A DNA stretch of 64,000 nt from Monosiga brevicollis MX1 (Eukaryota > Opisthokonta > Choanoflagellata > Craspedida > Salpingoecidae): assembly GCF_000002865.3 (NCBI RefSeq), contig NW_001865076.1, forward strand, positions 17,077 to 81,076, read 5' to 3'. Shown piece by piece: positions 11,155 through 44,103 of this stretch (its first letter is position 1; each line of letters opens with the position of its first letter). Under the pieces are notes generated by a model, which saw nothing but the letters and a program-made list of their open reading frames with translations, was not told the DNA's origin and searched no databases. The position numbers were made by a program, and so were the translations under genes.

Positions 11155-12471
11155 TTAAAGACGCCGAAGAACCTCAATCAAGTGAGTGTTGGCAGGGTAC
11201 CAAGCAATCTTATTGTCACCAGAGCTGGCGCTGAGCACGTCCATGTCACCATCGCCGTCGAGATCGGCTGCGCGAACAAAAGTCACGACGTTGGCTGCAG
11301 TCGAGATGATGATTTCGACAGAGAAAGTGCCGTCGCCCTCGTTTCGAAACCATGCAACTTTGTTATCAGCACTGCTACCGCTGATCACATCCACATGACC
11401 GTCTCGGTCAAGGTCGGCAGCGTAGACCGAAACGGCTTGGCTCGCAGTGTTCGTGATGATCTTGGGCGGAGAGAAGGAACCGTTTCCATGGTTTTGGTAC
11501 CAAGCGATCGTGTTGTCAGCAAGGCTGCTGCTCAGGACATCTGGATGCCCATCGCCATCAAGGTCGGCTGCATAGACCGAGGTTGCCCCGTCTGCGTTGG
11601 AAGTGATGACGGATCGGGCCGAGAAGGCGCCATTACCCAAGTTACGATACCAAGCAATGGTATCGTCCTCAAAGCTGGCGCTGAGCACGTCGACACGGCC
11701 ATCGCGGTCAAGATCAGCAGCAAACACCGAGCGCGCACCGTCGGCAGCCGCAGTGATTACTTTTTGATCAGAAAAGGTGCCGTTGCCAGTATTGTGGTAC
11801 CATGCCACTTTGTCATCGCCATAACTGGCACTCAGAACATCCATCTTGCCGTCGTTGTCTAGATCCACGGCAAACACCGAGGCCGCTCGGGCAGCATTGG
11901 CCGTGATGACTGCTTGATGTTGCGCAAAGGAACCATTGGCTTGATTGCGATACCAAACGATTGTGTTGTCAACGGCGTTGGCACTGAGGATATCCAGCCA
12001 GCCGTCGTTGTCCAGATCAGCTGCATAGATGGAAAACGCGTGTTTGGCTGTGGTGCTGATGATGTTCTCTGCAGAGAATGTGCCATCGCCAGTGTTGCGA
12101 TACCAGGCCACCTTGTCATCATTGGCGCTGGAGCTGATGACATCCAGTTGACCGTCACCATCAAGATCCGCCACGGCGACTGCGGTTGCAAACGCCGCGC
12201 CAGTCGTGATGATTTTGCTTTCAAACTGAGGCAGATACAGTTCTGGGCTCAATCGCACGAGGGATCGCAACACCGTGGCAAGATCTGCCACATCAACGCC
12301 GTTGACCACCACGCGGTTTGAGGCGTTGAGAAAGAGCGTGCCACTGCCGTCCACCGTGATCGATGGCTTGCTATCAGCCGTGACCAACGTGAGGAGCAAG
12401 CAGCACAGTCCCACCACCCATGGCAGGCAAGCACCTTGCATCCACCGATCTTGCACTCGCCAACGGCACAT
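11155..12471 (-). CDS. Secreted seven-repeat FG-GAP/VCBS protein
   Basis: A single exon of 438 codons starting at MCRWRVQDRWMQ. An earlier in-frame ATG at 12744 is rejected because it would translate low-complexity promoter DNA. A hydrophobic segment (WVVGLCCLLLTLVTA, about 16-30) is a signal peptide. After an Ser/Val-rich spacer there are seven repeats of about 47 residues, each with a calcium-loop core such as AADLDGDG..DVLSA followed by IAWYRN.G.G.FS. This is the FG-GAP/VCBS motif of integrin-alpha-type propellers, with Ca2+ ligands at DxDxDG (family knowledge). There is no transmembrane segment or anchor, so it is probably secreted as a seven-bladed propeller. It is divergent from, and paralogous to, the plus-strand gene at 12743. 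The ligand is unknown. Confidence 0.93.
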   Translation of the reverse strand: MCRWRVQDRWMQGACLPWVVGLCCLLLTLVTADSKPSITVDGSGTLFLNASNRVVVNGVDVADLATVLRSLVRLSPELYLPQFESKIITTGAAFATAVAVADLDGDGQLDVISSSANDDKVAWYRNTGDGTFSAENIISTTAKHAFSIYAADLDNDGWLDILSANAVDNTIVWYRNQANGSFAQHQAVITANAARAASVFAVDLDNDGKMDVLSASYGDDKVAWYHNTGNGTFSDQKVITAAADGARSVFAADLDRDGRVDVLSASFEDDTIAWYRNLGNGAFSARSVITSNADGATSVYAADLDGDGHPDVLSSSLADNTIAWYQNHGNGSFSPPKIITNTASQAVSVYAADLDRDGHVDVISGSSADNKVAWFRNEGDGTFSVEIIISTAANVVTFVRAADLDGDGDMDVLSASSGDNKIAWYPANTHLIEVLRRL

Positions 12472-12742
12472 CTTCTCCCTTTTCTTGAGACAGAAGCAAA
12501 AATCGACCCCGGTCTCGTCCTCTGACACCCCGCACACACGCGCGCGCACCCTACCCCCCGCCCCCGGCCCCGCCCCCCTGAAAAAAAAAATAAAATAAAT
12601 AAAAACAACACACAGAGAGGCAGTGCAAGTCAAACGGAGCTTCTCCCTGATAAAGTCGTCTAACAAACGAGGAAAGAACAAATGGGAGCGGAGGGGAAGT
12701 ATTTTACTTCTATTCCATTTTTTTTTTTTTTTTTGTTGGAGC
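12472..12742. promoter_or_regulatory. Shared promoter of the divergent FG-GAP pair
   Basis: The two start codons face away from each other with 271 bases between them, so both promoters must lie here or inside the genes. The segment carries a C-rich/A-rich block at about 12545-12605 and a T-run ending at 12734. No specific factor site is claimed. Confidence 0.5.
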
Positions 12743-14020
12743 ATGGGTCGCGTCTGCTCCTGCTTCTGGCTGTTCGCGGGCAGCGCCCTCCTGGTTTACT
12801 GGGCCGCGGTGGCGAGCGGCGTTGAGACGTCCATCACGGTTGATGCGAGTGGGGACCTTTATATCAATGCTAGCAATCGTGTTGTCGTCAACAATGTGGA
12901 TCTGCTGGCCGCGCTAAGGACGCTGGCCAGAGCGGTTGTTCCGCGCAGGCCCGAGCTGGTGATGCAACCGCTGGAGAGCCACGACATTACCGCCGATGCC
13001 GATGGGGCCGTGTCGGTGTACGCAGCTGACTTGGATAATGACGGTGACAACGATGTTCTTAGCGCCAGTGTCAATGACAACAAAGTTGCGTGGTATCGCA
13101 ACAACGGCGACGGCACCTTTTCCAACCAGCTCATCATCACCACAGACGCCACTTATGCATGGTCGGTGAACGCAGCAGACCTGAACAACGACGGCAATCT
13201 CGACGTCCTCAGCACGAGCGCCCGTGACGGCAAGGTGGCATGGTACCGCAACAACGGCGATGGCACCTTTTCCACTCAGCTTGTGATTACCACGGATGCC
13301 GATGGGGCCGTGTCCGTGTGCGCTGCCGATCTGGACGACGATGGCGACCTCGACGTCCTCAGCGCCAGTGCTTACGACAACAAGATTGCTTGGTATCAGA
13401 ATAACGGTAATAGTACCTTCTCCAGCCAGATTGTCATTGCGATTGCGGATCATGCGCGCTCGGTATACGCCGCCGACTTGGACAATGACGGAGATTTCGA
13501 CGTCATCAGCGCCAGCGCGTACGACGACAGGATTGCGTGGTACCGCAACGACGGCAACGGCACCTTTTCCCCCCAGATCCTCATCAGCGCCAGCGCCGAC
13601 TATGCGTGGTCCGTCTACGCCGCAGATTTGGACAAGGATGGCGACCTTGATGTTCTGAGCGCCAGCATGTACGATGATAAGATTGCATGGTACCGCAATA
13701 ATGGCAACGGCACATTCTCTGCACAAATTGTTGTCACCACGAACGCCTCTGGTGCAAACTCGGTGTATGCAGCAGATCTAGATAAAGACGGGTACCTGGA
13801 TATCCTTAGCGCAAGCATTTCCGACGATAAGGTTGCTTGGTACCGCAACAACGGCAACGGCATGTTTTCTACCCAGATCGTCATCACCACGGCCGCCCCA
13901 TTTGCGCGTTCAGTGTACGCCGCAGATCTGGACAATGACGGCCATCTCGACGTCCTCAGCGCCAACCTGGACGGCAATGTCATGTGGTACCGCAATCAGC
14001 TTCTTCAAAACCTCGGCTAG
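12743..14020 (+). CDS. Secreted seven-repeat FG-GAP/VCBS protein (paralogue)
   Basis: A single exon, 425 residues, starting MGRVCSCFWLFAGSALL, a signal peptide. It has the same order as its divergent neighbour: signal peptide, a leader with ITVDASGDLYINASNRVVV (the neighbour has a matching ITVDGSGTLFLNASNRVVV), then seven repeats with YAADLDNDGD-type calcium loops and KVAWYRNNGDGTFS strands. It ends at NQLLQNLG with no membrane anchor. Shared leader, repeat number and intron absence point to an inverted duplication that made the pair. Codon use and GC content match the surroundings, so recent transfer is not suggested. It is probably extracellular and calcium-binding; a role in adhesion or matrix is an inference only. 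Confidence 0.93.
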   Translation: MGRVCSCFWLFAGSALLVYWAAVASGVETSITVDASGDLYINASNRVVVNNVDLLAALRTLARAVVPRRPELVMQPLESHDITADADGAVSVYAADLDNDGDNDVLSASVNDNKVAWYRNNGDGTFSNQLIITTDATYAWSVNAADLNNDGNLDVLSTSARDGKVAWYRNNGDGTFSTQLVITTDADGAVSVCAADLDDDGDLDVLSASAYDNKIAWYQNNGNSTFSSQIVIAIADHARSVYAADLDNDGDFDVISASAYDDRIAWYRNDGNGTFSPQILISASADYAWSVYAADLDKDGDLDVLSASMYDDKIAWYRNNGNGTFSAQIVVTTNASGANSVYAADLDKDGYLDILSASISDDKVAWYRNNGNGMFSTQIVITTAAPFARSVYAADLDNDGHLDVLSANLDGNVMWYRNQLLQNLG

Positions 14021-18642: not shown

Positions 18643-19637
18643 ATGGTCACGGTGTTCCGCAGCCCGGCTCGCCGCCAGAACGAAGCAGCCACCACGAACC
18701 AGGATGGCTTGGACTTGTTTGCCGCCTGTCAGGCTGAGGACTCTCAACCCGCCATGTCCCTGCTGACCAACTGGTCTGATGAGCAGATTGCAGCCGCCGT
18801 AAAGTACAGGAATTCGGTGAGTGACGGCAAATCGATGTTGATGCGAAAGCCAAGGATATCGTACGTCTCGCCGTCAGGTTGGAAAAGATTTTGCCTAGCT
18901 CATGGCACCCGCCACGGCTACGGATAGACTGATTGGACAGCTTTGCGCTGGGCCTGCTGCAAGGGTCATGTCGACGTGGCTCGCATCCTGCTGGCATTTC
19001 AAGGGGCCCGGGAAGACTTTGATTCAATCTATGTCCGTACAGGCTTGCACGTCTCAAAATGGACGCCCTTCCTCTCATCCCCGACCGACTCCCTCCCCCT
19101 TTAAATCACGATGGTCGGTTGTCACCATGCCCATGCTCATGCTTGTGGCTATGTAACCGATAGGGAACAGACTCGCTGCTGCATCGGGCATGCAGCGCCG
19201 GCCACGTCGGCATCGTGCGCTTGCTCCTTGCCCGCGACGATGTTGATGTGAACGCCGAGGATATCGTACGTCTCGCCGTCACCGTCCCTGCGTCGTCTGC
19301 TTGCTGTTGGGCTTTCATCTTTCCCTCGTCTTTTCGCCGCGGCTGACGCTGGGACGGCCCCCTAGTATCGCAACACACCCTTGCATATCGCCTGCACCCA
19401 CGGTAACCTTGACATTGTGCGCCTGCTCCTTGAGAACACGGGCTTGAACACAGAGCCCAAAAACCAGGTATGGGCGCCGCAAGGCAGGACCCCCGCGCCT
19501 TGCACCACCACTGACATCGGCACCATGCTTAGGGCGGCCGGACCCCCCTCGATGTGGCCACCTCAAACCTCTTCCTCTCATGGCCGCGACTCATGCACGA
19601 GCGATCCCTGCATACCAAACCACGCTTGAGTGTCCTG
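18643..19637 (+). CDS. Second ankyrin-repeat protein (3' end unresolved)
   Basis: Exons 18643-18816, 18928-19032, 19164-19265, 19366-19467, 19533-19637, all phase 0, lengths 174, 105, 102, 102 and 105. The start exon (MVTVFRSPARRQ...DLFAACQAEDS) resembles the first exon of the ankyrin gene at 10.5 kb in length and pattern. Exons 2-5 carry one repeat each: LRWACCKGHVDVARILL, LLHRACSAGHVGIVRLLL, TPLHIACTHGNLDIVRLLL, TPLDVATSN. A further exon probably lies at about 19690-19815 (frame with PPSVVELLNQWPDVNP), but I cannot join it in phase. It is a cytosolic scaffold by family; the partner is unknown. It has the same exon-per-repeat design as the minus-strand gene but more diverged repeats. Confidence 0.75.
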
Positions 19638-20130
19638 GTGAGTGTTGGCTGGCATCAAGAGCCGCAACTGTTTTCCCAAGAAGTTCTGTCATCTCTCTGC
19701 CGCCATCCGTTGTGGAACTCCTGAATCAATGGCCAGACGTCAACCCCGTGCCCCTTTACCCTTGTCCTCAACCCTCGTCAAACTTGACTCTGTTTGCAAA
19801 CGCATTAAAGAAGGTAAGAAAGACCATGGAAATCATCGTAATGACAACTAGATCAGGTGCTGGCAACACCAAGAATTTGCAACTTTGGTCAATTATGCAT
19901 TTCTATACACGGATGAAGTCTGGATGGGGTCGTGCCGAAGATGCAACCCAAAAGCTTGAGCCCTCCAAAACGCCCTATCAGGCCTATCAGGCTCGCAGCT
20001 ACAAGCGCAGGCACTGGCATCGCGACAAATAACATTAATACTTCTCTTAAAACCTCAGATTAGCTTGCTATGTTCATTCATGTGCGGGCATTTTCGGTCA
20101 GAAATATCGGGACATCTTGGTGCAGAAAAG

Positions 20131-23100
20131 CTAGGCCATCGAGGAAGCGTTCAGCGATCCTTGCAGAGGCTTGACCAAGTCTTTGTCGTCCTTGCCCAGA
20201 GGCTCCTGTTGACACAACCAAGAAAACGGTCAGCAAGCACAAACACCTTGGTCGCATACCCACCGCTACGAAGACAACCCCCAACGAGGATGGGTCACTC
20301 TAAGACCTACGCCATAGAGGTTCTCAAGAACGTTGGTCAAGACGTCGTCCAGTGTCTTGGGTGTCGGCCGAATGCTGGGAGTCGCTTTCCAGCATTGCTT
20401 CATAACCTGCCCGAGCAAAACCATGCCCCATGAGCATGCGACTTCCGCTGTAAACTATACTCGGCCCCGCAACTTACCCTGTAGACTTGATGAGGGCAGT
20501 CATCAGGCTGCAGGAGCAATGCAGACTGCTTTGTGACAATCTGAGCAATTTCCGCGTGCGCATAGCCGGGCCAGGGGCGACGCCCATACGTGAAGAGCTC
20601 TACAGAAAAAGCACCGGATGCACGCCGCAATGAATGAGCATCACACGCGCGCATGTTCAATGACCAAGCAGCTTACTGCCACTTCAACGTACCCCATAAC
20701 AGAACCCCAAAACTGTAGATATCACTCTTGACGCTCGGCCTATGCACAGTCAAACCCGGAATTTAAAAAAAAATCGCCATGAGCCCCCATACACGTCCTC
20801 GAGGCCCAGAGCACTAGCAAGCCACGCACTGGTTGTCCGTGATGACTTCAGGTGCCTACGATGAGCAAAAATACATGGCAAACGTGACCAGCTCTTTGTG
20901 AGAGGGAGGCGCGCGTGTGTGTGCGGGCTTTTACAAGGTGCAAAATATGCTTCGACCCAACGCACCATCCAACGAATTGGCAGCGATTCGACGTCACGAG
21001 CCATGCTCTCTGGTGTGTTGGCAGCTTCGACCAAGCGAGCATCGCCAAAGCCTCCCAGCACCGCGCTTCCGTGTAGCGCAATGTACACACTGTCGGCTTG
21101 AATGTCTGTCAAGACGCCGAGCGGCACCCCCAGACGGATGAGAATGAAGGAAGACGGAAAAAATATGATGCAAGCAAGGACTCCGGCTGAACAACATACT
21201 ATTATGAATGACGCCTTTCTCTTCGAGAAAAGAGAGCGCGTCAACCACGTCCAAAGCATACTCGAGCAGCTGGCACTCGGTCACGCTCGAGGGGCAATCA
21301 GGCGTGGGTCGGTTGCTTCGAAGGAATGTTGACAATGAAGATCGCACCGGTTCAACAATGACAATCCATGACTCGAGATTGAAGCTGGTGCCGACCAGGC
21401 CAATCAAGCTTTCGTGACTCAGCTTGACGAGCATTTGAGCATCTTTGACCATGGCCTAACCCGCCACAAACCATTGTTGTGCAATGGCGATCAGCACACA
21501 CACGCAATCAGCCCGTTGGAGATGGCAAGCGGATGAGGCCTGAACGCACCAATTTGACAGACTCATCTGCCGGCTGAGCCAGTACAAAGCAGCTAAAGAC
21601 GTCCTGGGAAACGCTAGGATCGTCAAGTTCGTAATCAGCCACAGCGACGCGCGTCTCCTGATCGCTGGCAGCTGCCAAAAAGCAGCGGTGAAGCTTGATC
21701 TGCCCGAGCTCGCACACGGTCGTGGTGTCAATCGCAATGCGACCGCGCGAAACTTCCCAGTCCTTGAAGCAGTCTACAGTGGCAGTCCGACCAGAACAAA
21801 AAAGCAAAAAGCACCATCAAGGCTCATGGTGACGCAACGGGGAACAACCCACACCAGGTGACGAAGTTTGACTACAAACCGAGATCAACAGCAGGCACGT
21901 TGGACTCGCCCTTGCGGGTTGAATAGCGTCGAGCAAACAGGAACAACAACACAATCACCACGCACACGGCCACCACCACAACCACAAGACTCGAGATACG
22001 CAGAGCAGTTGCTCTATCTTCCCCAGTTGCCGCGTTCGTGTCAATGGTCGTCGTCGGCTCGGGTGACGGTGAAATGCGGGCAAAGGAGAGCTGAGTGCCA
22101 TCACTATGTGCGTCAAGAGGATGGCAAACGGATACAGTCATGGGGTGTCAGCATGATCCCAAGCCAGAGCAGTGCGGTGCGGACACCTTTGGCCACCTTG
22201 TTGGACCCGACGCGAGCAAGACTCAAAGGAGGGCATGGGTCAACTGCTGCAAAGAATCGACCCACCTCCAAGGACCAGTGCCATGCACATTTATGAAACG
22301 AGCAAAGGCTGTGTAGCCTGGGTCGAGGTCTTGAAGCACAAAGTTCACCGCGTGATCTGCAAGCGGATTGCTCAGAGGCACTTTGCGTTCAAGAACGGCG
22401 ATTCGACTGTCCGTCGAGTTGATCCAAATCCTAAGTCATCAAAACATTGACCACAACGGCAATGAGAGACGAGCCGGAGAAAGCCCGGAGCCAATCTTGC
22501 GGCAATGAGGAGAGAAGGAGAAGAAACACAAAAAAAGGACGGGTGGGACGCACTCGATAGCAACCACACTAGGATCGTCCACCCCTGGCCATTCGACGTC
22601 GATGCCAGCTTCACCAGCAAAAAATGATAGTTTGGGGGCTACAGTGGGAGCTGATATCGGGTACAGGTGAAGCATGAACGCAGATCATGAGAAGCTGGTC
22701 TGCGAGCAAGCGAATAGACGAGGCACCTCGGGGTCGTGAAGCCACATGGGCCTCAGCACGGATATCAGTACCTGTGGAAGGAAGAAAGTAGGTACCAACA
22801 CTGCCAAACGGTCCCACCCCGCCCATGGACTCTAGGGCCGCGGTGATCCGCAGGCTGGAGTCGGTGGGCAACTGGCAAACGAGATCGGAAAAGTAAAAGA
22901 CGAGGTTCGCAACGTTGGTAGAGCTGTTAACGGTGACCCGAGGCGAGTAGGCGGCGCCTTCGACGAGCAACGTGTCGTTTGTGGTGCTACGGAAACAAAA
23001 GCACAAGGTCGACAGGAGAGGTACGTGAAAATTGGCATCGAGACAGACTGGCAAAATAAAAAAAGAGACCAACCCTACTACGTGCAAAAGGGAAAGCGCT

Positions 23101-26022
23101 CGTACCTGTAGGCGCGCACGCGTACGCCCAGCGGCTCGCCGCGCCACACTTGTGCGGTCATGTTGAAGAGGGAGACGTTGAGACATCCCAATTGAGCAGA
23201 AGGAGCCAAGACAAGCGAGTGGGGTGGGTGCACCGGGGCTATTCGGCAAAGATATGGAGTAGGGGTTGGTGCCAGCAAAGATCAGCTGTCTCATGAGAGT
23301 GAGGGCATGGGAAGACATGACACGCCTGCTGCACTTACGCAAGCCTACAACATGAAAGATCAGAGGGGCGCTGGCCCGAGGCAAACACGTGGACGTTGTC
23401 TCGATGACATGACACATGGTCATGGAATGGGGATACAGACCCACGAGCGTAAAGCTGATGGTACTGCCCGTGCCCGTGGCCACCAGCTGGAGAATCAGGG
23501 ACATGCGCCCAACACCCAGAGTAAGAAGAAAGCAAAAAGAGACCTCTCGATAGGGAACTTGCAGCCAGCTTACGTTGATTGTTTGGCAACGTGAGGCGGG
23601 CGGAGCGCAGTTGTAGCAGGTGAGGTTCACACGACGAGCGCCTGCAGCAATCTGGAAGCGCTCGCCAACGGGGAACCACAGGTCGGCAGCCACCGTCACA
23701 TTGCCATACGGCATGTCAGGAAAGGCCTGGATCGTGGGTTTGAGATTCTCGATGAAAATACTGGGTATGAGCTGAAGCTGAGTGATCATGCGAAGGATCG
23801 CTGTGGGGATGTATTCGACAGGAGTGCCCTCGAGTCGAGGCGTGACTCCCAGACAGACATCCTGGGCGGCTAAATAAAACATGTGCACAAGGAAGGCATG
23901 CATTCGTGAGACATCCAGTGTGGTCCCCGCTTTAAGAAATCCCAAGTATCCATCCCCGCTTGACAGGCAGAACAAAGCACGAACAGCAGGTAAACTTGAG
24001 GTCGATGGAGCCGATCGGGGACCCAGTCACATCAAACTTGGTCCAAGGCGTTTGGGTCGTGATGGACTCAAACCCATTCAAGTTGACCGTCTATAGAGTG
24101 GTGCGAAGCGCATTTGTTGACGCGTTGACCAAAAAAACCGGCTGGGCCCCGCACCATAGCAAGAGGGATCACCCTGATCAAAGGGTCAGAGCCAGACCAG
24201 TCGTATCCTACCTCGCGAAACATGGTCACGAGAGCACTGCCACCCATGGCGGCATTGGCCTCGCTCGTGTTGTGCTGGATGCGCCGCATGCCCCCGCCAC
24301 GCTGGAAAACGGCGATGGATGGCTGATACTGACTCCATATGGCATCGTAAATGTCTGTCGGGTCCGAAGGAAGCAGAAGGTATGAATGCCATAGATCCGC
24401 GCGAAGATGGTTACACACGCAAAGATAGTCACACAGAGTCAGGCAAACCATGAGTCTGAAGGATCAAATGGCTTACCGCCACGTTTCGTTTTTACCGTTT
24501 CGCTCATGTCCATGATGCTAAAACCATTGGTAGCAGCAAACTGGGAAGAAATCCAATAGCCGATGGGACGACAGCCCACGGGGTGGATGTCGGAGATGAG
24601 GCGATAAGGGATGAGAAACTCGCTAGCGGATTGGGGTGGTGCGAGTATATTGGCCGTGGGCTGGTAGGCACCGGTGGGCTGCACGGGGATGATCGTGGTG
24701 CAATCTGAATTTGAATGAACACGATCAAAGACGACAAAAAAAAAAAAAAAGGTGACAGCAGATGAGCTTGGGCTTGCTTTTTGACCGTCGTGGCGCCGCA
24801 AGAGCGCCTCACTCACCGACTTGCAGACAGGGACGGAAGGCGGCGCCTGGGTACCGTGAACTATTTGTGACGCAGCCACATGCGTCTGCCCACTCTGCTC
24901 CACCTGCAATGTAACAGCCAGCCTGTCCGGGAAAGTCAGTCTCACTGGTTCCAACGGTGCATCCCTGTGTCAGTGCATACGTGAGGACTGGAGACAGGCT
25001 GAACACAGGCTCGGCCGAGAGCTTTCACAAATTGGAGGCGCTTGTTACGAGATGAAGCCGGGGTGAAGACGACGGACCTGTACCGGGACGCTGGTTTCAC
25101 CGGATATGGCGGTACTGGAGCAAGAGCAGGCATCTCTCGGGATGCACATGTTGATGAGCGGCTCAAAATAGCAGCTGCTGGAGGCCCCGCCACAGTTGGG
25201 TGCTGAGTAGAGGGAGCACACGGGTTTGGCATTTTTGTCGTGGCATATACCCAGCTCGTGATCATAGGTACAAGCGTCCCCGGGACAGGAAGTGGGACTT
25301 TGCTTGGTCCAGTGATCGCAAGGCACGGTTCCCACAGAGCAATTGGCAATGCCATCGACAAAAGAGCAAGAGTCGAAGACAGCAAAAGAGTTGGTTGTAT
25401 CCTCTACGAAAGTCACGCATTGCCCCAGCTGGAGAGGGCATGGGGTCCGCATTCAGCATGTGTACGAGAGAAGCAGGGCCAAGTCCTGTGTTGGGGTCTT
25501 CCGGCACACGAGCAGGGTGGCCGAGATGGCGGGTGCGCAACGAACCTCGAGGACCCTCGCTTCAACGGGATGGATGTTGAAGGCGTTGATGCAGGTGGGT
25601 TCCGAGTGCAAGGTCATGTCAAATTCGAAGGACACGATCGTGGTACGACCATTGCGCAGGCGCACGGAGAAGCTGGTATCGTAGGCGTCATCGGGGTCTT
25701 CGGTGGCGAGAGCCACGCAACTGGAACCCTCGTTATCGAAGCGCACCTCCTTGCACTGGGCGGCACTAGGCAGAACTTCGCAATAGTGCGTATTCCAGAC
25801 GCAGAGCCAAAAGGTCGGTGTGTGATCGCAGATACCACAGGTGACGGCACAAGAATTGGCAAAAGTTTGGTTTGCGCAAAGGCCAGAAGCTTTGCCAATG
25901 GCACACAAAACAGGGCTAACATCGACGCAGTAGTCGGCGTAGACTTGCGACGCTTGAAACAGGAGGCATGCCAGAACAATCCAACTGGCGAGTCTGCGAT
26001 GGCAAGACGTGCCTCGCGACAT
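20131..26022 (-). CDS. Receptor with ShKT domain, FN3-like region and catalytically dead tyrosine-kinase-like domain
   Basis: Twenty-one exons, phases consistent throughout: 26022-25510, 25428-25078, 24964-24817, 24704-24477, 24354-24212, 24090-23985, 23929-23574, 23486-23339, 23238-23106, 22986-22772, 22638-22554, 22430-22289, 22090-21880, 21773-21550, 21455-21200, 21105-20966, 20855-20830, 20739-20693, 20599-20478, 20406-20311, 20205-20131; 1254 residues. Signal peptide 1-29; six-cysteine ShKT domain 32-65; a long Cys-containing ectodomain; FN3-like stretch about 782-856 ending DLDPGYTAFARFIN; one membrane helix about 890-908; a stop-transfer RRYSTRK; kinase fold about 940-1230. The fold is clear from PIRWMAPE, SDIYSFGVLLWE and PGYAHAEI. 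The catalytic residues are gone: VAVA for VAIK (A972), HNN for HRD (N1087), S1092 for the loop Asn, GFG for DFG (G1105), and no glycine loop. So it is a membrane pseudokinase. Confidence 0.9.
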
Positions 26023-26461: not shown

Positions 26462-26815
<354 letters not shown>

Positions 26816-32060: not shown

Positions 32061-35000
32061 GCCTCGCCTTCCTCGCCGACCTTGTTTGCTTGCGCACGCG
32101 CCATGCAGCCCTCAACAGCACAGCCGATGACCCATCTATGGACTCGAATTGACGGCGGCAAGCTCCTGCGCCGGCGTCGAGGTGAGCTGCCGCCCCCCCT
32201 CTTTTGCTTCTGGCCACTTGCCCTGGCCGTCTGGTTCCGGCCCGTTGCGCGCCCAGGCGATCCTGCCTGCATTCAATCTCCCGTCTCCAATCCATCATCG
32301 CAGGCTATTCGTGTTCGGTGTGCCGCCTCTGGGTTGATGATGGCCAGGACATGTCGCGATATCGCGCTTGCCGTCCTACTTTCACACGCGATGCACACCT
32401 AATCGACGAGGAATCGGTATTGATTCGCACTCCCACGCCACCCCGACCACTGCCGTTAGGCTTGTCGCGCACATGAACGTCACAGTTACCTGCACCTGCA
32501 TCATTGTTTGGTTTTCTCTTTGCAGTCCACCAGCAAACACCATTGGATCTCGGGCGTTTTTGACAAGAGCAAAGTCTGCTTTCGGTGCACGCGTCCGGTA
32601 AGACTTGCTTCTCCGCCCCTCCGCGACTTCTTCTCAGCATGGAGCATTGCACTCAGTCTCCTTCCCTACCTCTGAATACGATCTTATCCATCTGCATGTC
32701 AGCTCGGTGTCAAAGCGCTTAGCTTGCAGGCACGCGCCTATCGCTGCTCGCTGTGCAAACGCTACATTCATCTGGATTGCCTCAAGAACCAGTTTGATGT
32801 GTGGGGCACCTGCGATCTTGGCGAGTTTGCTCCCATCACCTTGGGCCCTGAGGAGATTTGTCTTCAGCCTCTCCTCTCCGATGTTGTCAAACCGGGTGTT
32901 GCCGGCGTGTGCTTGACGGCCGACGACATTGACATGATTACAAGCTCGGGCCACAGCGGGTAAGCGTTCCCTACACCATGCCTCCACCCAGTTCTACGCA
33001 GCAGTTTTGCTGTCGTTGGCGCAGCTCTTTCCGGACACAAGACAGTGTTTCGTACTTAGCTCAGCTTCCCTGGCTCGCAGACTTCGCAAAGCCAGTCTGG
33101 ATGCCAACCTCCAACATCGTGCATCCACCGGTTACTTGTTTGGTACGTCTCCACCATCTCGTTCCATAGCGGCGGGGCAGCCAGAGCTGATTTGCGCATT
33201 GTGCTTCCGTGCCCGTTAGAGCGCACTAGCCCCATGGGTCGAGGGTCAGATTTTGAGCTCGGTCGACGCGTCTCGCCCATTCGCTCGCGCCAGGAATCAG
33301 ACGGCTCACTCACGGCACCGGACGACGAGGATGCTGTGTTTGCGGGCTTCAACGTGAACCGCCTCTCCGACTCTCAACAGTCAGTGCCTGGTCACGTGAA
33401 GCGTATCAAAAGCCTCCTGTTGTTTGCTCAAGCCACTGCCGCCATCATTGACACCGGCCCCTGCATTTGCCGCCCCACCCCACCCTCTGCTGCAGACAAG
33501 AGTTTCGGGCGAGCATGCGCCGTGCTTCAGCCCGCAAGGCCACAGCACATCGCAGGGCACACATGCAGGCGGCTCGCGCCTTGGAAGCGGCAGATCGTGC
33601 AGACTACCAGTTTCACATTCAGCCTCGGCCGGTTGGTTCATCTCTCCTGGCCGCCTGTTCTTGCATATACCCACGGCCACTTTTCACCATGATTATCCGT
33701 CCCTCTACGTCTCTCTTCTCCAGGAAACGTTCCCTCTTCTGGTCCTGGTCAACCCCAAATCTGGCGGTAATCAGGGTGCCAAGCTTTTGCATTCCTTTCT
33801 CTACTACCTCAATCCTCGACAGGTGTACAACCTCATGGCCACAGATCCCGATACTGGCAAGGTGCAGGGGCCCGGGCCGGCGTTGGACCGCTTCAAGGTG
33901 GGCCCTGGGCAGTGTAGCCTCGTGACGTGATTGGAAATAGCTGCTGCCCCGTCCCCCTTGCCTCAATTATCTTGAGCAGGCGGCACTGAACAGTCTCACC
34001 ATTGGTTGCATCTTAGAACGTTCCCAATTTGCGGATCCTAGTGTGCGGCGGTGACGGCACCGTGGGCTGGGTTTTGGCTGAACTTGACGCAAGGGGCATG
34101 GACAAAGACAGTGAGTTGGAGCAGATCGATATCAGATCCCCTGGCTTGGCCAACTTCCTTTCTGGCTCTCATGTGAGGTTTCACATCGTGTGTTACACCT
34201 GCGCGCAGAAATTGGGGTCGGAACTATTCCCTTGGGCACGGGCAACGACCTCGCTCGTTTTCTCAAGATGGGCGGCGGATATGAGGGGGAGTCAACCAAG
34301 AAGCTGCTTCACTGGATCATGGGCTCACTTGTCATGCAGCTGGACCGATGGTCCTTGACCTATCGACTGCGCGATCCTGCCCCAACAGCGGGCCTCAGTG
34401 ACATACCGGTCGCCGTGGAGCTCCCGCTGATCGTTGTCAATAATTACTTTAGTTTTGGCTCGGATGCTTTTGCCACCCTCAGCTTCCATTTGGCCCGGGA
34501 ACGCGACCCGGCCAAGTTCAATTCACGCATTCACAACAAAGCCTACTATGGCTTTCAAGGGGCCAAGGACATTTTCCGGCATCGCTACAAGGATCTCTGC
34601 GAGACTTTGGAACTGGAGGTGCGCCCACTGTGTTGTGGGATTCAAAGGCTGCCAGCTTTTCTCGCTTGCCCTCAGGCCGATAAGATACCCCAACTTGTGC
34701 TTACATTGCTCACCTGTTGCGCAATTAGTTTGACGGGCGTGACGTGACCCAAACCGTTCGGCGACAGGCCTTTGAAGCCATTGCCTTTCTCAACATTGCT
34801 TCCTACGCAGCCGGCACGCGACCGTGGGGCACCAAAAATGCCGTCGATGGATTTGACGCACCCAGTTCCGAAGACCAGAAGCTTGAGGTTGTTGGCTTTC
34901 AATCAGCGCTGGCCTTGGCCAAGGGCGTCATGCGCATTGGGCATGCAGCCCGTCTTGCCCAATGCCGGAGCGCAAAAATCACGTTTCACGTCGAGACACC

Positions 35001-41840: not shown

Positions 41841-43372
41841 TGGTGAAAGGGGCGGAACCCACTGATTCAAGTGGTTGAAACGGCAGCGGGGGCGGGTGTC
41901 TGTGCTCGTCCCGGCTGCTGGTTCATCAGGGCAAGACATCACAAGGGGAGCAGCCGCGTTGGCGATCCATCGCTTCATCCATCTGCCATAGACGGGCCAG
42001 GCCGCCCGCACACAAAGGTGCTTCATCTGGCCCTTTGAACCATTGAGTGCTTAACTTGGAAGTCTTATCAACATCGAGCTCTTCTCTCTGAATTGCCTTA
42101 CTTTTCCCAGCTTAAACTCTGTGGACAACCTCTCCTTCTCTCACACTCTCTGGCTCTTGTTTCTTTTGTTCAGCCCCCGAAATCTTTTGTTCCCCCTTGT
42201 TCCACCCCCGCTCCCTCCCCTCCCCCTCTCCTCTCTACCCTTCTCCCCACCTTCACCCCCATCTCTCCTTTCCCCTTCAACTCCCCACTACCCCCCACCC
42301 CCCGGCACCAACATCCCTCTGATAAAACCACCTCCCCCACCCCCTCCCTCTCACCCGTGCCGAGCCAGAACCAGCTGCCTCTCTCCCTGCCGGCACCAGC
42401 AGTTTTAGAGTGCCAAGGTAGACCTCCGCTCCGCTCCTCCGCTGCTTCCTCCGGCTGCCGCTGGCTCTGTCGCTGCGGTCATTGCGTTGCGTGCCCTTGA
42501 TGATGAATGCAACTGACTCCCGAAACAAGTGACTCAAACTTGTGGCTGCCTTTGAATGCAATCATTGCGCCCGGGGACCACGTCGCTTTGCCTTGAGAGA
42601 GAGGGAGAGAGAGTGAGAGAGAGATCGTGACGATGCCACATCAGGCACTTTACTTCACCACCCGGTCACTGCCCTTTTTGTGCATCTGATGCGATCGCTT
42701 CACACACACTCACACTCACACACACACACGCACCAGTCGCCGTGCGGTGGGAGACTTGAACCCAGTGTCTTGTCGTGGACCCGTGTTGTATACCTGGTGC
42801 TGGTGCCTGTGTGGGCTGACGCGTCTGCCCGTCGGTGCTCTCCTGTCCTGTGTCCGGGCTTGAATGCATTTTTTTTTCTCTGCTTCGATCCATTGCGTCC
42901 GGCAGCTTCCTCTCCTTCCCACTCTACCTCCCTCCCTCTCTGGTTCGTCGTCGACGCATGGATGCCATCGGTTGATATCATGCACCGCCGTTTTTTTTTT
43001 GTCTTGTGTTTTTGTTGTTTCCGGTTGCTCGCTCGACCCGCACAACACAAGCGTTACCTCTGCCACTTTCCCACAAAGTCTTTGTGTTTCTCTCCTTCTC
43101 CGCGGTGGTGGTCGTTCATGGTCTCAAAGCACACCGGCGTCCTTGAGTCTCTTGTTGTTTTTTTTTCCCCACTTTTGCCAGACCTGTCCAGTGCTTCCTT
43201 TCTCCCCTCTTCTCATGCGACCTGCCACATTCCACCCTGACGTGCTGTTTATTCTTCTTGGCAGTCTATTTTTCGTCTTACTCCGCCTCCCTGTTGACCA
43301 TCACGATTCCTTTTCTCATCATGCCCGGCTCGTTCAATTTCTTGTAGGGTTTGTTTTTCCTGTTTCTTTTCA
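41076..43372. other. Long intergenic/5'-leader region before Rac
   Basis: A (CA)n run at about 41803-41839, a C/T-rich tract at 42160-42420 and a (GA)n patch near 42595-42625. The sequence TTTCTTTTCAG ending at 43373 is a strong acceptor just before the Rac start, so the end of this region is probably a 5'-UTR intron. No other gene seen. Confidence 0.55.
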
Positions 43373-43390
43373 GGATCAGAAATCAGCAAG

Positions 43391-44103
43391 ATGCAAGCCA
43401 TCAAGTGTGTGGTTGTCGGTGACGGCGCCGTCGGTAAGACGTGCCTGCTCATCTCGTACACGACCAACGCCTTCCCCGGCGAGTACATCCCTACCGTCTT
43501 TGACAACTACTCGGCCAACGTCATGGTCGATGGCAAGCCCATCAACCTTGGCCTCTGGGATACCGCCGGTCAGGAGGATTACGATCGCCTCCGCCCCCTC
43601 TCCTACCCCCAGACGGACGTTTTCCTCATTTGCTTCTCCGTCATCAGCCCCGCCTCCTTTGAGAACGTTCGCGCAAAGGTGGGTCGTCTGGATTCTCTCT
43701 TGCTCTCATCATGTCTCGTCCGAGCATGGCCGCGCCATCAGTCCAGCTGGCGTGGTGCTGCCTACCGCGCTCTTCGCCACTCACCTCTGCATATCCATCC
43801 AATCCTTTGCAGTGGTACCCCGAGGTCAGCCATCACTGCCCCCAGACCCCCATCATTCTTGTTGGTACCAAGCTCGATCTGCGCGATGATAAGGATGCTA
43901 TTGAGAAGCTCCGTGAGAAGAAGCTCCAGCCCCTGACCTACCCCCAGGGTCTTCAGATGGCCAAGGAGATCAATGCTGTCAAGTACCTCGAGTGCTCAGC
44001 CCTCACCCAGAAGGGCCTCAAGACGGTCTTTGATGAGGCCATTCGTGCCGTCCTTAGCCCGCCCAAGATCACCAAGAAGCGTTCGGGATGCATGATCCTC
44101 TAA
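43391..44103 (+). CDS. RAC1: Rac-family small GTPase
   Basis: Two exons, 43391-43678 and 43813-44103, 192 residues, the length of animal Rac1. It has all G-box motifs: GDGAVGKTC (P-loop), switch [19 protein letters not shown] (switch II, Gln61 present), TKLDL (TKxD) and [20 protein letters not shown] and [15 protein letters not shown] are Rac rather than Cdc42 or Rho signatures. It ends [12 protein letters not shown]; the CaaX box ending in Leu predicts geranylgeranylation, and the preceding basic patch is shorter than in Rac1. It acts at membranes on actin, with PAK- and WAVE-type effectors by family knowledge. The start at 43391 is fixed by the protein N-terminus; a leader intron ends at 43373. 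Confidence 0.98.

What the first reader, a model, noticed from the sequence alone, without database searches (positions are those of the whole stretch)
20131..26022. Choanoflagellate-type receptor with an ShKT ectodomain and a fully inactivated tyrosine-kinase domain
The spliced model keeps the kinase fold (PIRWMAPE, SDIYSFGVLLWE, a C-lobe with PGYAHAEI) but has lost all catalytic positions at once: VAVA for VAIK, HNN for HRD, S for the loop Asn, GFG for DFG, and no glycine loop. The reading frame is intact over 21 exons, so this is not random decay. It suggests selection for a receptor pseudokinase acting as scaffold or allosteric partner, like HER3 or ROR/RYK in animals, but evolved separately. 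The ShKT plus FN3-like ectodomain adds to the novelty.
Basis: partly seen in the sequence, partly recalled or inferred. Interest (0 to 1): 0.86.

Follow-up and report, generated by a model that had tools for sequence, protein, structure and literature searches.

The report
Choanoflagellate receptor with a dead kinase
This is a gene of the single-celled choanoflagellate Monosiga brevicollis for a cell-surface receptor whose inner kinase domain has lost its catalytic residues, so it probably works by binding partners; receptors of this kind were already suspected in this species, so it is an unusually complete new example and not a new kind of thing.

Summary
On the minus strand, 26022 to 20131, lies Monosiga brevicollis MONBRDRAFT_29807. 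My hand model has 21 exons, 1213 residues: signal peptide, ShK-like domain, Cys-rich ectodomain, transmembrane helix, kinase domain, short tail. The kinase domain matches Pfam at 1.4e-47 but lacks the beta3 Lys, alpha-C Glu (Asp), HRD Asp (HNN), loop Asn (Ser), DFG Asp (GFG) and two of three loop glycines; APE Glu, alpha-F Asp and alpha-I Arg remain. The model frame scores best in 21 of 21 exons, so decay is unlikely. Non-catalytic receptor signalling is the best reading; no partner is known. HER3-like phosphotyrosine scaffolding is weakened: no Tyr in the activation segment, one in the tail. No ectodomain relative was found; kinase kinship is unresolved. A 2013 paper already says that three of nine M. 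brevicollis RTKB kinases appear to lack catalytic residues (passage). No structure model was obtained. In passing: LRR receptors with tandem kinase-like units, the first inactive-looking in two of three.

The parts
20131..26022 (-). whole gene, 21-exon hand model, 1213 aa; NCBI MONBRDRAFT_29807
25510..26022 (-). exon 1: signal peptide (by eye), then ShK-like six-Cys domain (aa 32-65); exon end uncertain (25546 in the automatic model, and the NCBI protein agrees with that)
   Evidence: no earlier Met in the open frame
25101..25428 (-). exon 2, Cys-rich ectodomain; downstream junction uncertain
23974..24987 (-). exons 3-6, ectodomain (24987-24817, 24704-24477, 24354-24212, 24090-23974)
   Evidence: NCBI protein differs at some junctions
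22772..23861 (-). exons 7-10, ectodomain; junctions around 23440-23238 uncertain
22266..22638 (-). exons 11-12, FN3-like membrane-proximal segment (assigned by eye; no Pfam match)
21880..22103 (-). exon 13, transmembrane helix (from aa 848, by eye) and juxtamembrane
21550..21773 (-). exon 14, kinase N-lobe: degenerate glycine loop, no beta3 Lys (VAVA or FSCF)
21200..21455 (-). exon 15, alpha-C (Asp for Glu) to the start of the catalytic loop (HN-)
20966..21105 (-). exon 16, rest of the catalytic loop (N..S) and GFG activation segment without Tyr, ending PIRWM
20311..20855 (-). exons 17-20, C-lobe: APE, SDIYSFGVLLWE, PGYAHAEI, CW..RP (20855-20830, 20739-20693, 20599-20478, 20406-20311)
20131..20205 (-). 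exon 21, end of the tail and stop

Best explanation
MONBRDRAFT_29807 encodes a single-pass receptor tyrosine pseudokinase. Shown from sequence: an open spliced frame, a likely signal peptide and transmembrane helix (by eye), a Cys-rich ectodomain with an ShK-like domain, and a kinase-type domain without the residues for ATP/Mg binding and phosphotransfer. Inferred: it signals without catalysis. The ectodomain binds a ligand or surface, and the retained kinase fold docks on and modulates an active M. brevicollis receptor kinase as co-receptor or allosteric partner, as FLOR-1 works with OLD-1 in C. elegans or HER3 with EGFR/HER2. Binding through the fold is more likely than phosphotyrosine docking, because few suitable tyrosines remain.
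For: Gene and organism. Kinase domain E 1.4e-47; it lies with the tyrosine kinases, apart from the Ser/Thr and TKL rows, at 95/94. Of positions at least 90% conserved in 30 rows taken as active, this protein keeps 3 of 13 catalytic or nucleotide positions and 16 of 26 others (Fisher p 0.04). Codon scores favour the model frame over both others in 21 of 21 exons; in a neutral simulation (500 runs per setting, substitutions only) the 305-codon kinase stretch has no stop in 3.8% of runs at 80% residue identity and 0.2% at 52%. Precedents: FLOR-1 (PMC10523662, passages), HER3 (PMC3014569, passages; PMC13259870, sections 3 and 5).
Against: No partner, expression or localisation evidence. No ortholog, so no direct test of selection on the dead domain. 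The hand model was chosen to be open, and in 4 of 21 exons (2, 3, 19, 21) the absolute codon score is at or just below zero. The Fisher test is weak and depends on an uncertain N-lobe alignment. Retention does not clearly favour the C-lobe: non-catalytic conserved positions kept are 5 of 9 before the catalytic loop and 11 of 17 after it (my count). Motif loss does not always mean inactivity (PMC3014569, passages). No structure model was obtained.
Confidence: 0.6

Rival explanations
1. Ligand-binding, adhesion or decoy receptor: the ectodomain does the work and the dead kinase domain is merely kept folded, or the receptor acts as a dominant-negative sink for ligand.
For: Large ectodomain with 11 N-glycosylation sequons and few cytoplasmic docking tyrosines.
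Against: The kinase domain is still highly recognisable, more than an inert tail would need.
Confidence: 0.25
2. It descends from the first, inactive-looking kinase unit of LRR receptors with tandem kinase-like units, detached and given a new ectodomain.
For: Shares the loss of HRD Asp and DFG Asp (GFG) with P0002 KD1; groups with P0002 KD1 and C13 KD1 at 92/81, and with P0002 KD1 at 85/87 after the catalytic columns and C13 KD1 were left out.
Against: treekit flags long branches meeting in both trees. With the two pseudokinase units left out the join to the LRR group is 62/58. By blastp LTK/ALK (136 bits) scores above P0057 (121) and P0002 KD1 (98.6); the LRR profile scores 149 bits with L035 but 136 without it, against 144 for ALK/ROS. 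It lacks the long juxtamembrane stretch of those receptors (by eye).
Confidence: 0.12
3. A decaying gene or a wrong gene model.
For: No ortholog found; ectodomain splice junctions differ between models; neither model is backed here by transcripts.
Against: Model frame best in 21 of 21 exons, and low chance of no stop under neutral drift; last 486 residues identical in my model and NCBI's.
Confidence: 0.05
4. Unusual but active kinase or ATP binder, with catalysis rescued by other residues.
For: Some predicted pseudokinases show activity (PMC3014569, passages).
Against: Lys, HRD Asp, loop Asn and DFG Asp are all missing together.
Confidence: 0.03

Closest known systems
M. brevicollis RTKB kinases said to lack catalytic residues (3 of 9; PMC3584944, passages)
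   Same: Same species; receptor kinases predicted inactive, proposed as pseudokinases or scaffolds.
   Different: Whether 29807 is one of the three could not be checked: a term search of that paper found no accession and Manning 2008 is not held.
HER3/ERBB3
   Same: Receptor pseudokinase; that the HRD Asp is the residue lost in HER3 is recalled, not from a call.
   Different: HER3 lacks two of eleven catalytic residues (PMC3014569, passages); here nearly all are lost. HER3's phosphorylated tail recruits PI3K (PMC13259870, section 5); here the tail is short with one Tyr. No ErbB domain is found in the ectodomain.
C. elegans FLOR-1 (KIN-16 family; PMC10523662, passages)
   Same: Lineage-restricted receptor pseudokinase with glycine loop, HRD Asp, loop Asn and DFG Asp changed.
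   Different: Has a known active partner (OLD-1) and keeps the beta3 Lys and alpha-C Glu; 29807 has no known partner and has lost both.
LRR receptors with tandem kinase-like units (P0002, P0032, M. brevicollis C13)
   Same: KD1 of P0002 shares GFG and the missing HRD Asp.
   Different: LRR-type ectodomain, two or three kinase-like units in one chain, and a last unit that looks active.
LTK/ALK and ROS
   Same: Best single-domain blastp scores among the 44 other domains compared (136 and 125 bits).
   Different: Active kinases with other ectodomains; grouping not shown (p-AU 0.315).

Membership tests
Receptor tyrosine pseudokinase | signal peptide, single transmembrane helix, C-terminal tyrosine-kinase-type domain | tested here: met
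   signal peptide and helix read by eye
Receptor tyrosine pseudokinase | loss of beta3 Lys, HRD Asp or DFG Asp | tested here: met
   all three lost
Receptor tyrosine pseudokinase | no phosphotransfer activity | not testable with these tools
   needs a biochemical assay
HER3 (ErbB family) | ErbB ectodomain (receptor L and furin-like domains; recalled) | tested here: not met
   no such Pfam match
HER3 (ErbB family) | long tyrosine-bearing tail (recalled) | tested here: not met
   about 35 aa after the kinase match, with one Tyr
ROR/RYK/PTK7 | Frizzled/Kringle/Ig, WIF or Ig-repeat ectodomain (recalled) | tested here: not met
   no such Pfam match
M. brevicollis RTKC | kinase domain close to RTKC8 (PDB 8E4T) | tested here: inconclusive
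   8E4T is the best hit for the C49 kinase but is not in the 60 rows shown for 29807 (of 1505 and 1393 matches); grouping with the C49 clade is not rejected (p-AU 0.268)
M. brevicollis RTKB | membership in the nine RTKB genes | not testable with these tools
   no RTKB sequence or accession at hand
LRR receptor with tandem kinase-like units | LRR ectodomain and more than one kinase-like unit | tested here: not met
   one kinase domain, no LRR match
ShK domain protein | ShK match above Pfam's cut-off | tested here: inconclusive
   21.7 bits as fragment, 15.8 in the whole protein, cut-off 20.9

The most novel reading that the evidence does not exclude
Outside animals, in the choanoflagellate lineage, there is an old line of receptor pseudokinase domains without HRD Asp and DFG Asp. 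In LRR receptors (M. brevicollis C13; P0002, whose species is not given) it sits in one chain with an active-looking kinase, JAK-like; in 29807 it has become a free-standing receptor under a new ShK-containing ectodomain. This would be a HER3-like and JAK-like division of labour evolved outside animals.
Probability: 0.12. Interest if true: 0.65.

Novelty: new member of a known kind. Interest (0 to 1): 0.34.

Why it matters
[quoted passage not shown] brevicollis has many tyrosine kinases (135 by PMC4054682, endnotes). A receptor with nearly every catalytic residue gone but an open frame gives a clean test of whether non-catalytic receptor signalling is older than, or arose in parallel to, the animal cases. 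The tandem receptors seen in passing raise the same question within one protein chain.

Tried and rejected
An automatic splice search, with the start fixed at 26022, found 19 exons and missed short C-lobe exons, though it reached the same stop; replaced by a hand model. The best own-genome kinase hits were looked at as possible sisters: the top one, C26, belongs to an SH2-containing cytoplasmic kinase (by eye). Trees and AU tests of four placements did not settle kinship. Rows dropped: P0032 KD2, C13 KD1, the Leishmania kinase, TNNI3K and the C46 C-lobe before the tree (31 of 36 rows used); eleven of the 36 rows, where nine new ones were added, and then P0002 KD1, C13 KD1 and TNNI3K from its tree (31 of 34 used). 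L035 on C56 was suspected as a pseudokinase because its match starts late, but it has Lys, Glu, HRD, N and DFG. dN/dS was not run, for lack of a close relative. Structure prediction was not obtained, so no fold search was made. What I say about print rests on the paper searches in the held open library only; Manning 2008 could not be read. Papers seen: passages of PMC8662651, PMC4054682 (and its endnotes in full), PMC3584944, PMC10263333, PMC3014569 and PMC10523662; outline and sections 3 and 5 of PMC13259870.
Full report
Where it is. The window lies in a 39.5-Mb genome. The gene's protein is in NCBI as MONBRDRAFT_29807 of Monosiga brevicollis MX1. On the minus strand I put together 21 exons by hand, with GT-AG introns of 71-202 bp, from ATG 26022 to the stop at 20131, 1213 residues. 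An automatic search with the start fixed at 26022 reached the same stop with 19 exons. The NCBI model, 1103 residues, starts at my residue 136 and thus lacks the signal peptide and ShK domain; the last 486 residues are identical. In between, several ectodomain junctions differ, so the exon number and the ectodomain sequence are provisional. From the FN3-like segment to the stop the two models agree; both are predictions without transcripts.

Domains. The kinase domain matches PK_Tyr_Ser-Thr at 1.4e-47, from profile position 36 on. The ShK-like domain has all six cysteines (by eye); as a fragment it passes Pfam's cut-off, in the whole protein it does not. A genome search for ShK scored 5 candidates and listed two matches over the cut-off, both on C38 and neither this gene. 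The FN3-like segment before the membrane is by eye only; Pfam has no match.

Dead kinase. In the alignments 29807 has no beta3 Lys, Asp for the alpha-C Glu, HNN for HRD, Ser for the loop Asn, GFG for DFG, and one of three loop glycines. APE Glu, alpha-F Asp and alpha-I Arg remain. The beta3 register is uncertain: VAVA is 34 residues before alpha-C and FSCF 17; the 31 rows with both Lys and Glu have 14-20. From the domain's N-terminal side VAVA fits by eye. Neither has a Lys. Of 17 M. brevicollis rows (picked mostly as good matches, so not a fair sample), two lack both the HRD Asp and the DFG Asp: 29807 and C13 KD1. A scan of all three minus-strand frames of 21950-20000 found no HRD-like, VAxK-like or glycine-loop motif, and one DLG at the end of the juxtamembrane exon.

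Not decay. In 21 of 21 exons the model frame scores best for codon use, though in exons 2, 3, 19 and 21 its own mean is at or just below zero; over the whole coding sequence the sums are +100 against -369 and -397 for the other frames, where stop codons weigh heavily. The model was picked to be open, so this is supporting and not independent evidence. Neutral simulation of the 305-codon kinase stretch (substitutions only, 500 runs per setting) gave no stop in 22% of runs at 89% residue identity, 3.8% at 80% and 0.2% at 52%. Positions conserved in 30 rows taken as active are kept at 3 of 13 catalytic and 16 of 26 other sites (p 0.04), a modest contrast. This argues for a maintained folded protein, but it is no dN/dS test.

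Kin. A search with the whole protein (the 8000 candidates sharing most words were scored) listed 31 proteins; apart from the gene itself none aligned over more than 20% of the query. A search with the kinase part (3538 candidates) listed 69. Own-genome searches with both ectodomain halves found only the gene itself (3 and 4 candidates scored). All these searches need shared words, so remote relatives may be missed. This agrees with the report that only 21% of receptor TKs are orthologous between M. brevicollis and S. rosetta (PMC4054682, endnotes). By blastp against 44 other domains the kinase is nearest to LTK/ALK (136 bits), ROS (125), own C26 (122), the unnamed LRR receptor P0057 (121) and lamprey Abl (120). 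Profiles give 149 bits for LRR receptors with L035, 144 for ALK/ROS, 136 for LRR receptors without L035 and 134 for Abl/Src-like. Trees and AU tests leave its place open.

Mechanism. A non-catalytic receptor is the best reading. HER3 and FLOR-1 are the working precedents: HER3 activates EGFR and is phosphorylated on its tail by it (PMC13259870); FLOR-1 acts downstream of the active OLD-1 and regulates its level at the membrane (PMC10523662, passages). In 29807 the activation segment has no Tyr; of nine cytoplasmic tyrosines one is juxtamembrane (871), seven lie inside the kinase domain and one (1188) in the tail. Docking through the fold is therefore likelier than phosphotyrosine scaffolding. 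An inert or decoy receptor remains a serious rival. The partner, ligand and effect are all inferred.

Known or new. PMC3584944 states that three of nine M. [quoted passage not shown] Eight human receptor tyrosine pseudokinases are reviewed in PMC13259870. So 29807 is a new, very complete member of a known kind. One paper in the held library has both 'ShKT' and 'receptor tyrosine kinase' (listing only, not read).

In passing: LRR receptors with tandem kinase-like units. P0032 (ENA, unnamed) has LRR and three kinase matches: KD1 (HRD, DLG), a degenerate KD2 (2.6e-17) and KD3 (HRD, DYG). P0002 (eukprot, species not given) has LRR, a sub-threshold LDLa match, and two detected kinase units, KD1 (HRN, GFG; it keeps Lys and Glu) and an active-looking KD3 (HRD, DYG); the stretch between may be a degenerate KD2, by eye only. 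M. brevicollis contig C13, about 68.5-73.9 kb, has in order an ectodomain frame similar to P0002 (31%, 4e-15 against a set of seven proteins), KD1 (HRC, GFS) and KD3 (VAVK, DFG; its HRD was not read across the introns). The gene was not spliced. Two paper searches with choanoflagellate and tandem-kinase terms showed no paper on such a receptor in the rows listed (20 of 129; 10 of 26).

Noticed in passing
L047 (G000:C13:66000-75999), genome about 68540-73870, + strand: Unspliced receptor gene with an LRR/LDLa-like ectodomain (by eye; similar to P0002), a kinase unit that looks dead (HRC, GFS) and a last kinase unit with VAVK and DFG: a JAK-like tandem in a receptor, with counterparts P0002 and P0032.
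   Followed up: partly
P0032 and P0002, whole proteins: KD1 keeps HRD and DLG in P0032 but is HRN/GFG in P0002, so the first unit may have been inactivated within this kind of receptor; orthology of the two units is not shown.
   Followed up: partly
window 26022-25618, - strand: The NCBI model of 29807 omits the first 135 residues of my model, which hold the signal peptide and ShK domain.
   Followed up: yes
window about 26465-26815: Long CT repeats around a run of N upstream of the gene; the sequence there is incomplete.
   Followed up: no
window 19150-19640, + strand: Ankyrin-like exons (by eye) that converge tail to tail with this gene.
   Followed up: no
window 11158-12795, - strand: Open frame of 546 aa with eight FG-GAP-like stretches.
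   Followed up: no
window 34115-34744 + and 43298-43933 +: A diacylglycerol kinase exon and a Ras-family GTPase exon, 8 to 17 kb from the receptor gene.
   Followed up: no
G000 contigs C7, C9, C12, C16, C28, C48 and others: Many kinase hits with similar long open frames of about 650-800 aa and a profile range of about 13-203; looks like a large expanded kinase family.
   Followed up: no
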